Assembly: GCA_002104935.1 (NCBI GenBank)
Contig: MCGT01000007.1
Span: 744,001 to 808,000 of the forward strand
Length of the DNA stretch: 64,000 nucleotides
Direction: 5' to 3'
Origin: Hesseltinella vesiculosa
Lineage: Eukaryota > Mucoromycota > Mucoromycetes > Mucorales > Cunninghamellaceae
The notes below the pieces were generated by a model. That model searched no databases and was not told where the DNA came from. It saw nothing but the letters and a program-made list of their open reading frames with translations. Made by a program: the position numbers and the translations under genes. Below, piece after piece: positions 53,696 to 57,699 of this stretch (positions are counted from its first letter, which is position 1; each line of letters starts with the position of its first letter).

Positions 53696-54391
53696 TCATT
53701 GGAATCGGTTGATCAGGTCTTTGACATTGTCAGGCACTGGTTGGCTATTGATGGCGGCAGGTTTGGCAGGACCAGCCACTGTGCGGAAAGGAACCAGACC
53801 AGTCCAGATCGAGGCGCAGAGCTCCTTGTCAGCCAAATCTTCTTTTTCTTCACTTGGCTCGGGGTCCAGGCTTCGCTTGACACTGGCGGTCTCGATGTCG
53901 AATTTGACAACTTTGGTGGTTTGTTTTTCGATCTTGGTCAGCTCACGGCACTGATCCATGCGGCCGGGCAAAAGGTGATCGGTGATGATCTTGAAGGCCT
54001 CGGCCCGTTCTTCCTCATCGTCCACTAGCTCTGCACGGCCAAACACCACCGCTGTTTCGTAACGGACCGAGTGGTTGAAAGGGGTCAATGCCAACACCAG
54101 CGCACTGAGATCCGTCACTTCCATGCACACTTTTTTCCCACGGGCCAAGTGCTTCACAAGGCGGCCAGACACGTAGCCATGCAAGTACACAGTGTTTCCT
54201 CGGCGACCGTAGACCATGGGGATCACCACTGGCGTCGATTCAGGATCACCGTCTTCATCTTCTAGACAAAAACCAACATGGCCCATCAGACCTTTATCCA
54301 GCACCTGATACACAGCCTCGTGTTCATAGTGAGCCCGTTCTTTGTGACGGTGCACCGTGTTGATATCTTTGGGCCCAGCTTGGTAGGACAT
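53696..54391 (-). CDS. Pyridoxamine 5'-phosphate oxidase-like FMN-binding protein
   Basis: One exon, 231 residues. The split-barrel flavin-binding fold is indicated by LMGHVGFCLEDEDGDPESTP, PMVYGRRGNTVYLHGYVSGR, KKVCMEVTDLSALVLALTPF and NHSVRYETAVVFGRAELVDD. A helical segment and a C-terminal WTGLVPFRTV strand follow, as in the PNPOx-like flavin-nucleotide-binding family. These proteins are usually uncharacterised FMN oxidoreductases, not true vitamin B6 oxidases. The start is the first ATG (54391). Convergent with the PAQR gene (about 150 bp between stop codons). Confidence 0.9.
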   Translation of the reverse strand: MSYQAGPKDINTVHRHKERAHYEHEAVYQVLDKGLMGHVGFCLEDEDGDPESTPVVIPMVYGRRGNTVYLHGYVSGRLVKHLARGKKVCMEVTDLSALVLALTPFNHSVRYETAVVFGRAELVDDEEERAEAFKIITDHLLPGRMDQCRELTKIEKQTTKVVKFDIETASVKRSLDPEPSEEKEDLADKELCASIWTGLVPFRTVAGPAKPAAINSQPVPDNVKDLINRFQ

Positions 54392-54954
54392 GTTTCTTCG
54401 AGAGGGGGAAATGAGACAGAAAGTTTGGTCGATGAAAAGGAAACACGAAAAAAATTCCCTCCATTTTTATACCATTGATGGATGGGTCTGACAAATCGTA
54501 GCCAATCAACAATGCTTTGAAACTTAAAACGAACATAGCAATGTGACACTTTTTGGTCCAAAAAGTCCCCTTTTTTAAGCAATGTGGATGGGCCCGAAAA
54601 GGCGGACGTCATTTTCCTCCTTTTGACGATGAATCTTGGTTTATTTGCCCTCCATGACTTCGGGCTCCTTCGACACTTTGGCTTACTCACCACCAGGCAA
54701 CATAAGGCCGGGTGCCGGCCTGGTTGCACAAGATAGACCATGATGGATATGCACAGATGAATAAACAATAGGCAAAGGAAATACCACTGTCCGCCAAGCA
54801 TGGCTCTTCCTGGTAAACCAGTGCATTGTCACGATGATGAAGCTGCGCGCTGCGGCGGCGGTGGCTTGCCAAAAAGAACAAAAATTCCCAGTCAGCTCTT
54901 TTTTTTTTTTTTCTTCCTCGATTTTTTTTTTCGTCCGTTAGTCATCAATCGATT
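54392..54954. other. Intergenic between PNPOx-like gene and NMD3
   Basis: Divergent promoter of about 560 bp. On the minus strand, an ATG at 54801 opens a frame with one strongly hydrophobic helix (WYFLCLLFIHLCISIMVYLV) and a possible donor GTGAGT near 54690. It could be the first exon of a small membrane protein, but no second exon was found. Confidence 0.35.
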
Positions 54955-56755
54955 ATGGAATATCACCCTGTTGTTACTGAACAGCTCATGTAAGTAGTCG
55001 CTGCCCAAACTTTTGTTACTGATCTTGTTGATGCTGATCCTTTTATCATTTCTAGTCTGGTAGGTGCACTTCGATCGTGCAGTTTTCTTTTGGGAGGCTC
55101 GTTTTTTTTCCATGCAACTTGATCTTACTCTCTTTTATCGCTTAGTGTCCGGGCTGTGGGGCTCCTACGCCACCCAACCCTGCCAACATGTGTGTGAACT
55201 GTATCCGCAATGAAGTGGATATCACAGAAAACATTCCCAAACAAGCGACCATTCACTTTTGCCGTGGCTGTGAGCGTTACCTCCAACCTCCTGGCATCTG
55301 GGTCCCAGCTCAACTGGAATCGAAGGAGCTGTTGACACTGTGTCTCAAAAAACTCAAAGGCCTGAACAAGGTGCGCTTGGTGGATGCTGGTTTTATCTGG
55401 ACCGAACCTCACAGTAAGCGTATCAAGGTCAAGCTCACCATCCAAAAGGAAGTCTTTGCCAACACTGTCTTGCAGCAAATCTTCCAAGTCGAATTCATCG
55501 TTTCATCCCAACAATGTGATGAATGTACCCGTCTTGCTGCCCAAAACACCTGGAAAGCCTCTGTGCAAGTGCGTCAAAAAGTCGAACACAAGCGTACCTT
55601 TTTGTACTTGGAACAACTCATCCTGAAACACAACGCCCACAAGGACACCACCAACATTAAAGAGACAAAGGATGGTATCGATTTCTACTACGGCCAGCGT
55701 GCTCATGCGATCAAGATGGTTGAGTTCTTGGCCGCCGTGGTGCCCATCAAGTAAGAGGCGTTTATTTTTTTCCCCCAAGCCTTCGAGTTTTGTCTCACAT
55801 CGTTACCCCTCTCAGGTACAAGACCAGTGAACAATTGATCTCCACTGATATTCACACCAGCACAAGCAACTACAAGTTTACTTACTCTGGTAAGAACAAG
55901 CCAGACTTTCAATGAACGCCGATTGTCTGACTTGTTTTATTAGTTGAAATTGCACCCGTCTGTCGTGACGATCTGGTGGTGCTGCCCAAGAAATTAGCCA
56001 ACAGCCTTGGTAGTCTTAGCCAGTTGTTGGTGTGCACCCGCATCAGTAACTCGATCCACTTGCTGGACATCAACTCGTTGCAATCGGGTGATCTTTCCCA
56101 TTCGGTGTACTGGCGCAGTCCTTTCCCATCGCTTGCCAGCTCCAAGGCGATGATAGAATACTATGTGCTGGACGTCGAGCCTCTTGGTCCTGTGAACGGC
56201 AAGCATGTCCTGGCTGACGTGCATGTGGCTCGTATGTCCGACTTTGGCCGCAACGACACACAATTCATTGCTCGCAGCCACATGGGGTCGCTGCTGAACC
56301 CCGGTGACACTGTGATGGGCTATGACCTGACCAGAGCCAACTTCAACCACGACGAATTCAACAAGCTCAACATGCAAAATCTGCCCGACGTCATCTTGGT
56401 GCGCAAGACATACCCTGTGCGACGAAAGAAGAACAAGCAACGTAACTGGAAGATCCAGCAACTCGGCAAACAAGAAGAAGAAATGCTGCCCCGCAAACAG
56501 GACCAGGCCAAGATCGAACATGATATGGAAATGTTTATGCGTGATCTGGAAGAAGACCCTGAATTCCGCTCCACCGTCAACATCTTCAAGCAAGACGGCC
56601 CTGCTCCTGCTCATGACGACGATATGATGACCGACGGCGAATTCGAAGAAGAAGACTTCCCTGAAATCTCCTTGGAAGAAATGCTTGATGAAATGGCCAT
56701 CAATATGGATGATCCTGATCAAGCCATGGCCGACGACGATGAAATGATGATCTAG
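54955..56755 (+). CDS. NMD3: Nmd3, 60S ribosomal subunit nuclear-export adaptor
   Basis: Five exons (54955..54989, 55056..55059, 55146..55750, 55816..55889, 55944..56755) give 509 residues. The N-terminus MEYHPVVTEQLI leads into the first zinc pair CPGCG, then CVNC, with VDITENIPKQATIHFCRGCE and ERYLQPPGIWVPAQLESKEL. A further CDEC pair, the eL41/eIF5A-like middle and a Leu/Asp-rich acidic C-terminal export region (FPEISLEEMLDEMAIN) follow. Nmd3 recruits Crm1 to pre-60S particles. The second exon is only 4 nt (TCTG) between a good acceptor (TTTCTAG) and donor (GTAGGT). Without it the frame is lost. Confidence 0.95.
55056..55059 (+). other. NMD3: 4-nt micro-exon of NMD3
   Basis: TCTG flanked by TTTCTAG and GTAGGT. 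Exon 1 ends in phase 2 (CTC AT), exon 3 starts in phase 0 (TGT CCG GGC). Inserting the four bases gives L-I-L-C-P-G-C-G, aligning with the first zinc knuckle of Nmd3. Confidence 0.8.
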
Positions 56756-57194: not shown

Positions 57195-57699
57195 ATGGCC
57201 GATACCGAACATACTCTACCTGGCGCATTGCCTCCAACTCCTCCAATCTCTGCAAAGTCTCTTCTCATCCAACATCATCCTCACCATGTTCAGCAAGACT
57301 ACGACCATACTATGGACGTCGATGGCATGTCGTCGGAAAAGTAAGTGTCAAAAAAAAAAATAAAAACGGCGAAGAAAAGATGGGTCGTCCAGGAACATAA
57401 AGTTCAGGACGTCAAAGACCATTTATTTATAGATGTTGTTATCCAATAGGTTCGAGCAAATGTTTGAGCGAAAGCGCAAACGCCGAGAATCCCACAATGT
57501 CGTGGAACGCCGTCGACGCGAGAATATCAATGCTAGGATTGATGATCTGTATGCCCTGCTGGAGCCTCAGGAAACCAAACCCAGCCGAGGCACCATTCTT
57601 CAATTGACGGTGGATTATGTACGTGACATGCAAGCCAAGCACTATGACCAACAACAGCGTATTTTGGAACTCGAAGCCCAACTTCGACAACAAATTTAA
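57195..57699 (+). CDS. bHLH transcription factor (E-box type)
   Basis: Two exons (57195..57340 and 57450..57699) give 131 residues. A short disordered N-terminus precedes the basic region RRESHNVVERRRRENINARI, which has the His5-Glu9-Arg13 triad that reads CACGTG or similar E-boxes. Helix 1 (IDDLYALLEPQ), a short loop and helix 2 (KPSRGTILQLTVDYVRDMQA) follow, then a brief heptad-like tail (QQRILELEAQLRQQI). GTILQLTVDYVR resembles the MITF/USF/Ino4-like classes. It probably works as a dimer; the target genes are unknown. The small size recalls Ino4. Confidence 0.9.

What the first reader, a model, noticed from the sequence alone, without database searches (positions are those of the whole stretch)
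55056..55059. A 4-nucleotide micro-exon is needed to read NMD3
Seen in the sequence: exon 1 stops in phase 2, exon 3 starts with the conserved zinc knuckle in phase 0, and TCTG sits between TTTCTAG and GTAGGT. Using it yields L-I-L-C-P-G-C-G, as expected for Nmd3. Exons this small are very rare, and splicing of both flanking introns within 156 nt needs a special mechanism (recursive or exon-skipping aware).
Basis: partly seen in the sequence, partly recalled or inferred. Interest (0 to 1): 0.8.

Follow-up and report, generated by a model that had tools for sequence, protein, structure and literature searches.

The report
Four-base micro-exon in fungal NMD3
In the mould Hesseltinella vesiculosa, the gene for a ribosome-export protein can only be read correctly if a four-letter exon is spliced in between two short introns, and the public gene model lacks this start of the protein.

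Summary
The window lies in Hesseltinella vesiculosa (Mucorales). NMD3 reads as five exons; exon 2 is TCTG (55056-55059) between a 66-nt and an 86-nt intron. Of 155 in-frame canonical parses, only this one has consensus-like donors on all its introns. It scores best against a profile built without Mucorales/Umbelopsidales. Its N-terminus, MEYHPVVTEQLIL, matches four full-length relatives at 9-12 of 13 residues. The pattern YAG-4 nt-GTRNGT arises in 0.21% of 20,000 shuffles. The public model starts at internal Met28 and lacks half of the first zinc finger. So do 26 of 37 listed Mucorales/Umbelopsidales clusters, against 13 of 83 others; this suggests, without proving, that the awkward structure is shared. 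Micro-exons down to 1 nt are published, also in fungi. So this is a new member of a known kind. No cDNA and no relative's DNA was available.

The parts
54955..54989 (+). NMD3 exon 1 (35 nt), codes MEYHPVVTEQL + 2 nt of the Ile codon; ends in phase 2
   Evidence: matches full-length relatives P0003, P0004, P0008, P0009; upstream in-frame stop TGA at 54838
54990..55055 (+). intron 1 (66 nt), GTAAGT...TTTCTAG; candidate branch sites CTGAT 33 and 18 nt, and TTGAT 24 nt, from the 3' end
   Evidence: donor score 5.57 (50th percentile), acceptor 7.68 (79th) among 150 self-trained introns; branch candidates
55056..55059 (+). micro-exon 2 (TCTG): third base of Ile12 and the whole of Leu13
55060..55145 (+). 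intron 2 (86 nt), GTAGGT...CGCTTAG; candidate branch site TTGAT 23 nt from the 3' end
   Evidence: donor 4.79 (31st percentile), acceptor 5.88 (51st)
55146..55750 (+). NMD3 exon 3 (605 nt), starts at Cys14 of the first CxxC pair
   Evidence: Pfam NMD3 profile position 1 falls on residue 14
55188..55190 (+). internal ATG (Met28) used as start by the public model P0001; the stop of the skipped isoform lies at 55195-55197
55751..55815 (+). intron 3 (65 nt)
   Evidence: agrees with the continuous public protein P0001
55816..55889 (+). NMD3 exon 4 (74 nt)
55890..55943 (+). intron 4 (54 nt)
   Evidence: agrees with P0001
55944..56755 (+). NMD3 exon 5 with stop codon

Best explanation
TCTG at 55056-55059 is a constitutive 4-nt coding micro-exon of the NMD3 gene (60S ribosomal export adaptor) of Hesseltinella vesiculosa. 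It supplies the last base of Ile12 and the codon of Leu13, directly before the first zinc-finger cysteine, and restores the frame between exon 1 (phase 2) and exon 3 (phase 0). The two short introns are recognised by intron definition and must be removed one after the other, because a 4-nt exon leaves no room for both splice sites to be engaged at once; either order gives the same mRNA. The structure most likely arose when an intron was gained 4 nt from an older one, and is probably shared by many Mucorales and Umbelopsidales. Shown here: sequence, phase, uniqueness of the parse, fit to homologues and to the genome's splice signals, and truncation in the databases. Inferred: actual splicing, its constancy and order, sharing by relatives, and the origin by intron gain.
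For: Unique parse with consensus-like donors among 155. Best of 154 distinct products against an HMM built from 65 NMD3 N-termini without Mucorales/Umbelopsidales (rows taken from the hits): 81.1 bits, next 78.1 (another 4-nt exon with a very poor donor), non-canonical single intron 68.2, annotated start 34.3. First 13 residues identical at 12 (Lichtheimia P0003), 12 (Sporodiniella P0009), 10 (Umbelopsis P0008), 9 (Parasitella P0004) positions. The two donors used are the best-scoring of 14 GT sites in 54955-55145 (5.57 and 4.79, next 2.27); the two acceptors are the best of 7 AG sites in 54990-55149 (7.68 and 5.88, though 55063 follows closely with 5.77). None of these sites was among the candidates for the training set. 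Chance of YAG-4 nt-GTRNGT 0.21%. Introns of 66 and 86 nt against a median of 70 nt (5-95%: 52-112; search limited to about 45-129 nt), while a single intron would be 156 nt. Pfam NMD3 matched over profile positions 1-243 instead of 15-243, 292.7 against 274.9 bits for the public model. Footprints in relatives' models: Umbelopsis sp. P0022 runs QLIL-VII..., as if reading on into an intron that begins GT right after the Leu codon; Mucor velutinosus P0005 starts MQ-CPGCG, as if an intron ending in AG abuts TGT; Apophysomyces P0002 has HFSL-CPGCG, which fits TTTAG directly before TCTG (the back-translation is mine).
Against: No cDNA, read or peptide across the junction was available. No DNA of a relative could be found, so no footprint shows both introns in one relative: P0002 speaks only to intron 1, P0022 and P0005 only to intron 2. 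The public model (P0001) and 25 other clusters start at Met28; some of these could rest on transcripts that I cannot see. 13 of 83 clusters outside Mucorales/Umbelopsidales start there too, so truncation alone does not prove a micro-exon. A bare YAG-4 nt-GT arrangement is common by chance (13.9%).
Confidence: 0.93

Rival explanations
1. One intron with a weak donor inside exon 1 (54970 or 54973) joined to 55145, giving MEYHP- or MEYHPV-CPGCG, as in the public model of Umbelopsis vinacea (P0011).
For: Both joins are in frame; P0011 reads MDYNPV-CPGCG.
Against: Donors GTTGTT and GTTACT score -5.19 and -2.49, below every one of the 150 training introns; the intron would be 176 or 173 nt. It drops EQLIL, present in all four full-length Mucorales/Umbelopsidales proteins. 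P0011 is itself most simply a predictor's way round a missing micro-exon (inference).
Confidence: 0.02
2. The functional protein starts at Met28, and exons 1-2 are 5' untranslated or absent, as the public model P0001 has it.
For: 26 of 37 listed Mucorales/Umbelopsidales clusters start there.
Against: This removes Cys14 and Cys17 of the first treble-clef zinc finger, which in yeast Nmd3 (C19-C22-C35-C38) stays bound to eIF6 (PMC6579518, passages seen). Exon 1 codes a peptide nearly identical to that of full-length relatives. The Met28 start scores 34.3 against 81.1 bits.
Confidence: 0.02
3. A different 4-nt exon, GCTC at 55097-55100, is used (Met-Leu instead of Ile-Leu).
For: In frame, GT-AG; second-best homology score, 78.1 bits.
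Against: Donor GTTTTT scores -5.45, and the acceptor is GGAG (4.33, above several used ones); its second intron would be only 45 nt. The four full-length relatives have Ile-Leu.
Confidence: 0.01
4. One non-canonical intron (TA...AG) from 54991 to 55145 joins ATG to TGT (QLM-CPGCG).
For: In frame; 68.2 bits, third of 154 products.
Against: Needs a non-canonical donor one base from a consensus GTAAGT and loses a residue that all four full-length relatives have.
Confidence: 0.01

Closest known systems
1-nt exon of CYP621A in Fusarium (Nelson and Syed 2026, PMC12940212; parts 1 and 2 of 3 of the text seen)
   Same: Fungal coding micro-exon inside a conserved motif; wrong in all but one of the public transcripts used there; deduced from phase mismatch, homologues and an over-long apparent intron (139 nt against a median of 56). 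The same paper names an 8-nt exon in a Phanerochaete P450 gene.
   Different: 1 nt, P450 gene, Ascomycota, confirmed by RNA reads. Here 4 nt, ribosome-assembly gene, Mucorales, no RNA evidence.
Plant micro-exons including 1-nt exons of APC11 and VPS55 (PMC8831610, passages seen; PMC4674806, passages seen)
   Same: Ultra-small exons in conserved genes, pervasively misannotated; sequential intron definition proposed for APC11.
   Different: Land plants, validated by RNA-seq and RT-PCR.
20-nt micro-exon of Xlr2 in Trichoderma (PMC11121469, passages seen)
   Same: Fungal micro-exon missing from public models; its absence takes away part of an N-terminal zinc domain.
   Different: 20 nt and glucose-regulated; I know of no regulation of the NMD3 exon.
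Nmd3 of yeast in pre-60S particles (6n8k and others; PMC6579518, passages seen)
   Same: Same protein family; phmmer E 8.6e-178 over residues 10-491 of 509.
   Different: No claim made here about its gene structure.

Membership tests
Micro-exon (internal coding exon of 15 nt or less) | Bounded by canonical AG and GT splice sites of introns of normal length | tested here: met
Micro-exon (internal coding exon of 15 nt or less) | Needed for the reading frame and for a conserved protein sequence | tested here: met
Micro-exon (internal coding exon of 15 nt or less) | Included in mature mRNA | not testable with these tools
   no transcript data held
Micro-exon (internal coding exon of 15 nt or less) | Conserved in related genomes | tested here: inconclusive
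   indirect footprints in relatives' protein models; no relative's DNA
NMD3 (60S ribosomal export adaptor) | Pfam NMD3, NMD3_OB and NMD_SH3 domains over their cut-offs | tested here: met
   292.7, 127.2 and 79.8 bits
NMD3 (60S ribosomal export adaptor) | First treble-clef zinc finger with two CxxC pairs | tested here: met
   C14-C17-C29-C32 in the rebuilt protein; half missing in P0001
NMD3 (60S ribosomal export adaptor) | 60S binding and Crm1-dependent export (feature recalled) | not testable with these tools
   experiment needed
Recursive splicing site | A 5' splice site re-formed at the junction and cut again, leaving no exon | tested here: not met
   four bases remain in the product and are needed for the frame

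The most novel reading that the evidence does not exclude
Inclusion of the 4-nt exon is a regulated bottleneck kept across Mucorales and Umbelopsidales. Skipping it, by joining two normal-strength sites across 156 nt, gives a stop at codon 29 (55195-55197), 553 nt before the end of exon 3, and so probably an mRNA degraded by nonsense-mediated decay. Because that stop lies just after the Met28 ATG (55188), the skipped mRNA could alternatively re-initiate and make an NMD3 without its first zinc finger, so that splicing would tune 60S export. Only the geometry is shown.
Probability: 0.1. Interest if true: 0.65.

Novelty: new member of a known kind. Interest (0 to 1): 0.42.

Why it matters
It corrects the N-terminus of a highly conserved ribosome-assembly factor, and points to one likely cause why most listed database clusters of NMD3 in Mucorales and Umbelopsidales (26 of 37 starting at Met28, 2 more starting later) lack half of the zinc finger that holds on to eIF6. 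It adds a 4-nt exon in a fungus outside Ascomycota and Basidiomycota to the small set of ultra-small fungal exons that I found in print, and gives an easily tested case of how splicing by intron definition handles an exon too small to be recognised as such.

Tried and rejected
Rfam on the window, at gathering thresholds, found nothing. Paper searches: NMD3 with microexon gave 2 papers, neither about an NMD3 exon by title and abstract start. Microexon with Mucor/Rhizopus/Mucoromycota, at least 2 of 4 terms, gave 6,178 papers of which 15 were listed; the only listed one with 'microexon' is an RNA-seq workflow. One search (at least 4 of 5 terms) listed 8, the only one with 'microexon' being on an ichthyosporean. 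A Mortierella paper in the listing uses the word only for a read-mapper option (PMC4462047, passages). A fungal 1-nt exon in PMC12308204 lies between mitochondrial group II introns and is not spliceosomal (passages). One search (Hesseltinella with intron or exon) gave nothing useful.

A first splice-site training script found no introns because its threshold was too high. A second gave a noisy set of 345 candidates without clear consensus, which I dropped. The third, with iterative site models seeded by GTR, YAG and a branch motif and non-overlap on both strands, gave 150 introns from 264 kb of contig C67; it limits length to about 45-129 nt and rests on coding scores, not transcripts. A later check showed that no candidate intron of that set starts in 54951-55150, so the sites under test did not train it.

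Considered and rejected: assembly indel (relatives' QLILCPGCG requires exactly the four bases that the direct join lacks); weak donors in exon 1; the second 4-nt candidate at 55097-55100; a non-canonical TA-AG intron; start at Met28; recursive zero-nucleotide site.

Counting choice: the 37 clusters called Mucorales/Umbelopsidales are P0001-P0034, P0039, P0041 and P0066 of the 120 listed (of 4731 hits). Placing the named genera in these orders is from my own knowledge, except Hesseltinella. Bifiguratus (P0035) and Calcarisporiella (P0044) were counted with the others. Clusters are 90% identity representatives, so members may differ at the N-terminus. For the HMM, 65 of the 83 other clusters were used; those without both CxxC pairs or with fewer than 10 residues before the first were left out.

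Full report
What is there. The window is G000:C67:744001-808000 of a 27.05-Mb genome in 85 contigs; the contig is 870,592 bases long. The public protein identical to this gene over its whole length, named for Hesseltinella vesiculosa (Mucorales, Cunninghamellaceae), lies on a contig of the same length (P0001). A Pfam NMD3 search of the whole genome finds one place, this gene.

The gene model. Exons 54955-54989, 55056-55059, 55146-55750, 55816-55889 and 55944-56755 give 1530 nt and 509 aa without internal stop. The four-base exon TCTG completes Ile12 and codes Leu13, so the protein starts MEYHPVVTEQLILCPGCGAP. Without it, exon 1 (phase 2) and exon 3 (phase 0) cannot be joined in frame: skipping gives a stop at codon 29, retention of intron 1 at codon 13, of intron 2 at codon 34.

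Is it forced, or one of many readings? I enumerated all stop-free readings from any ATG in 54700-55145 to TGT at 55146 with up to two GT-AG introns of 40-400 nt: 155 parses, none without an intron, 11 with one, 144 with two. Only one has consensus-like donors (GTRNG or GTANGT) on all its introns, the micro-exon parse. Scored against an HMM of 65 NMD3 N-termini from outside Mucorales and Umbelopsidales, it is the best of 154 distinct products (81.1 bits). Second is another 4-nt exon (GCTC, 55097-55100; 78.1), whose donor GTTTTT scores -5.45. The non-canonical single intron reaches 68.2 and the annotated Met28 start 34.3. By shuffling, YAG-4 nt-GT alone is unremarkable (13.9% of 20,000), but with a GTRNGT donor it falls to 0.21% and with GTANGT to 0.07%; any frame-restoring exon of up to 31 nt with GTRNGT appears in 0.94%. 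The test was framed after the pattern was seen.

Splice signals. Site models trained on 150 introns from 264 kb of the same contig put donor 1 at the 50th, donor 2 at the 31st, acceptor 1 at the 79th and acceptor 2 at the 51st percentile. The two donors are clearly the best of 14 GT sites (third 2.27). The two acceptors are the best of 7 AG sites, with 55063 (5.77) close behind acceptor 2 (5.88). The in-frame single-intron alternatives use donors scoring -5.19 and -2.49, below all 150 training introns. Intron lengths of 66 and 86 nt are ordinary (median 70), while a single intron would have 156 nt, above all training introns, whose length was however limited to about 129 nt by my search. The sites under test were not among the training candidates. 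The model rests on coding scores, not on transcripts.

Relatives. Four full-length entries support the N-terminus: Lichtheimia ramosa MEYHPVVQEQLIL (12 of 13 identical), Sporodiniella MEYHPEVTEQLIL (12), Umbelopsis ramanniana MDYNPEVTEQLIL (10), Parasitella MDYHPEIVEQLIL (9), each followed by CPGCGAP. Of 37 Mucorales/Umbelopsidales clusters among the 120 listed, 26 start exactly at the Met of the second CxxC pair, 2 start later, 4 are complete, and 5 have odd starts (P0002, P0005, P0011, P0022, P0030). Of the other 83 clusters, 13 start at that Met (Fisher P = 8.6e-9, with related sequences counted as independent). Two searches with the N-terminal 42 residues (32 and 27 hits) listed no further entry named for these orders. 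The odd starts look like predictors stumbling over introns: P0022 reads QLIL-VII..., as if running into an intron after the Leu codon; P0005 reads MQ-CPGCG and P0011 MDYNPV-CPGCG, as if an intron ends directly before TGT; P0002 reads HFSL-CPGCG, which fits CATTTTAG before TCTG. None shows both introns in one relative. Chytrid partial entries that begin S-L-C or S-S-L-C (P0107, P0108, P0115) would fit AG-TCTG at the same place, hinting that intron 1 is the older one. That is inference from protein letters; no relative's DNA was found.

What the annotation loses. The rebuilt protein has C14-C17-C29-C32. In yeast the matching finger (C19-C22-C35-C38) is a treble clef that stays bound to eIF6 during cytoplasmic 60S maturation (PMC6579518, passages). 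The public model keeps only the second pair, and matches the Pfam NMD3 profile from position 15 instead of 1 (274.9 against 292.7 bits).

How it most likely works. A 4-nt exon is hardly recognisable across itself, and two spliceosomes could not sit on it together (general knowledge). But each intron alone is a normal short intron, so it can be defined and removed by itself, one after the other. Guo and Liu argue the same for the 1-nt exon of Arabidopsis APC11 and cite a 9-nt potato exon whose second intron leaves first (PMC4674806, passages). No special mechanism is called for, although skipping is a possible error, since donor 1 and acceptor 2 are themselves normal sites. The skipped mRNA ends at 55195-55197, right after the Met28 ATG at 55188; whether this is ever used is unknown.

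Place among known things. One-nucleotide exons are known in plants (PMC8831610, passages) and in Fusarium CYP621A (PMC12940212, parts 1 and 2 of 3); a switch-like 20-nt exon is known in Trichoderma Xlr2 (PMC11121469, passages). I saw no paper on an NMD3 micro-exon or on micro-exons in Mucorales in the listings. These cover open-licence PubMed Central papers only, and several listings were capped (25 of 51, 15 of 6,178, 15 of 49). This is a new, well-supported member of a known kind.

Noticed in passing
53696-54466 (-): Divergently oriented neighbour: open frame with Pfam Pyridox_ox_2 (pyridoxamine 5'-phosphate oxidase-like, E 5e-32).
   Followed up: partly
57195-57699 (+): Downstream neighbour: open frame 57433-57699 with a helix-loop-helix DNA-binding domain (Pfam HLH, E 2.1e-15); an upstream exon from an ATG at 57195 to GTAAGT at 57341 probably belongs to it.
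   Followed up: partly
P0107, P0108, P0115: Partial chytrid NMD3 entries begin S-S-L-C or S-L-C, which would fit an AG-TCTG acceptor at the same position as intron 1 here: a possible very old intron.
   Followed up: no
P0005: The Mucor velutinosus NMD3 protein carries the source name 'Uridine/cytidine kinase', which looks like a naming error, since its Pfam domains are those of NMD3.
   Followed up: no
55097-55100 (+): A second in-frame 4-nt candidate exon (GCTC) exists in what is intron 2; its donor GTTTTT makes it implausible.
   Followed up: yes
55062-55065 (+): Just after the micro-exon, GTAG-GTGCAC forms an AG/GT pair (acceptor 5.77, donor 2.27) that could in principle act as a zero-nucleotide recursive site; its product would be the frame-shifted skipped mRNA.
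   Followed up: partly
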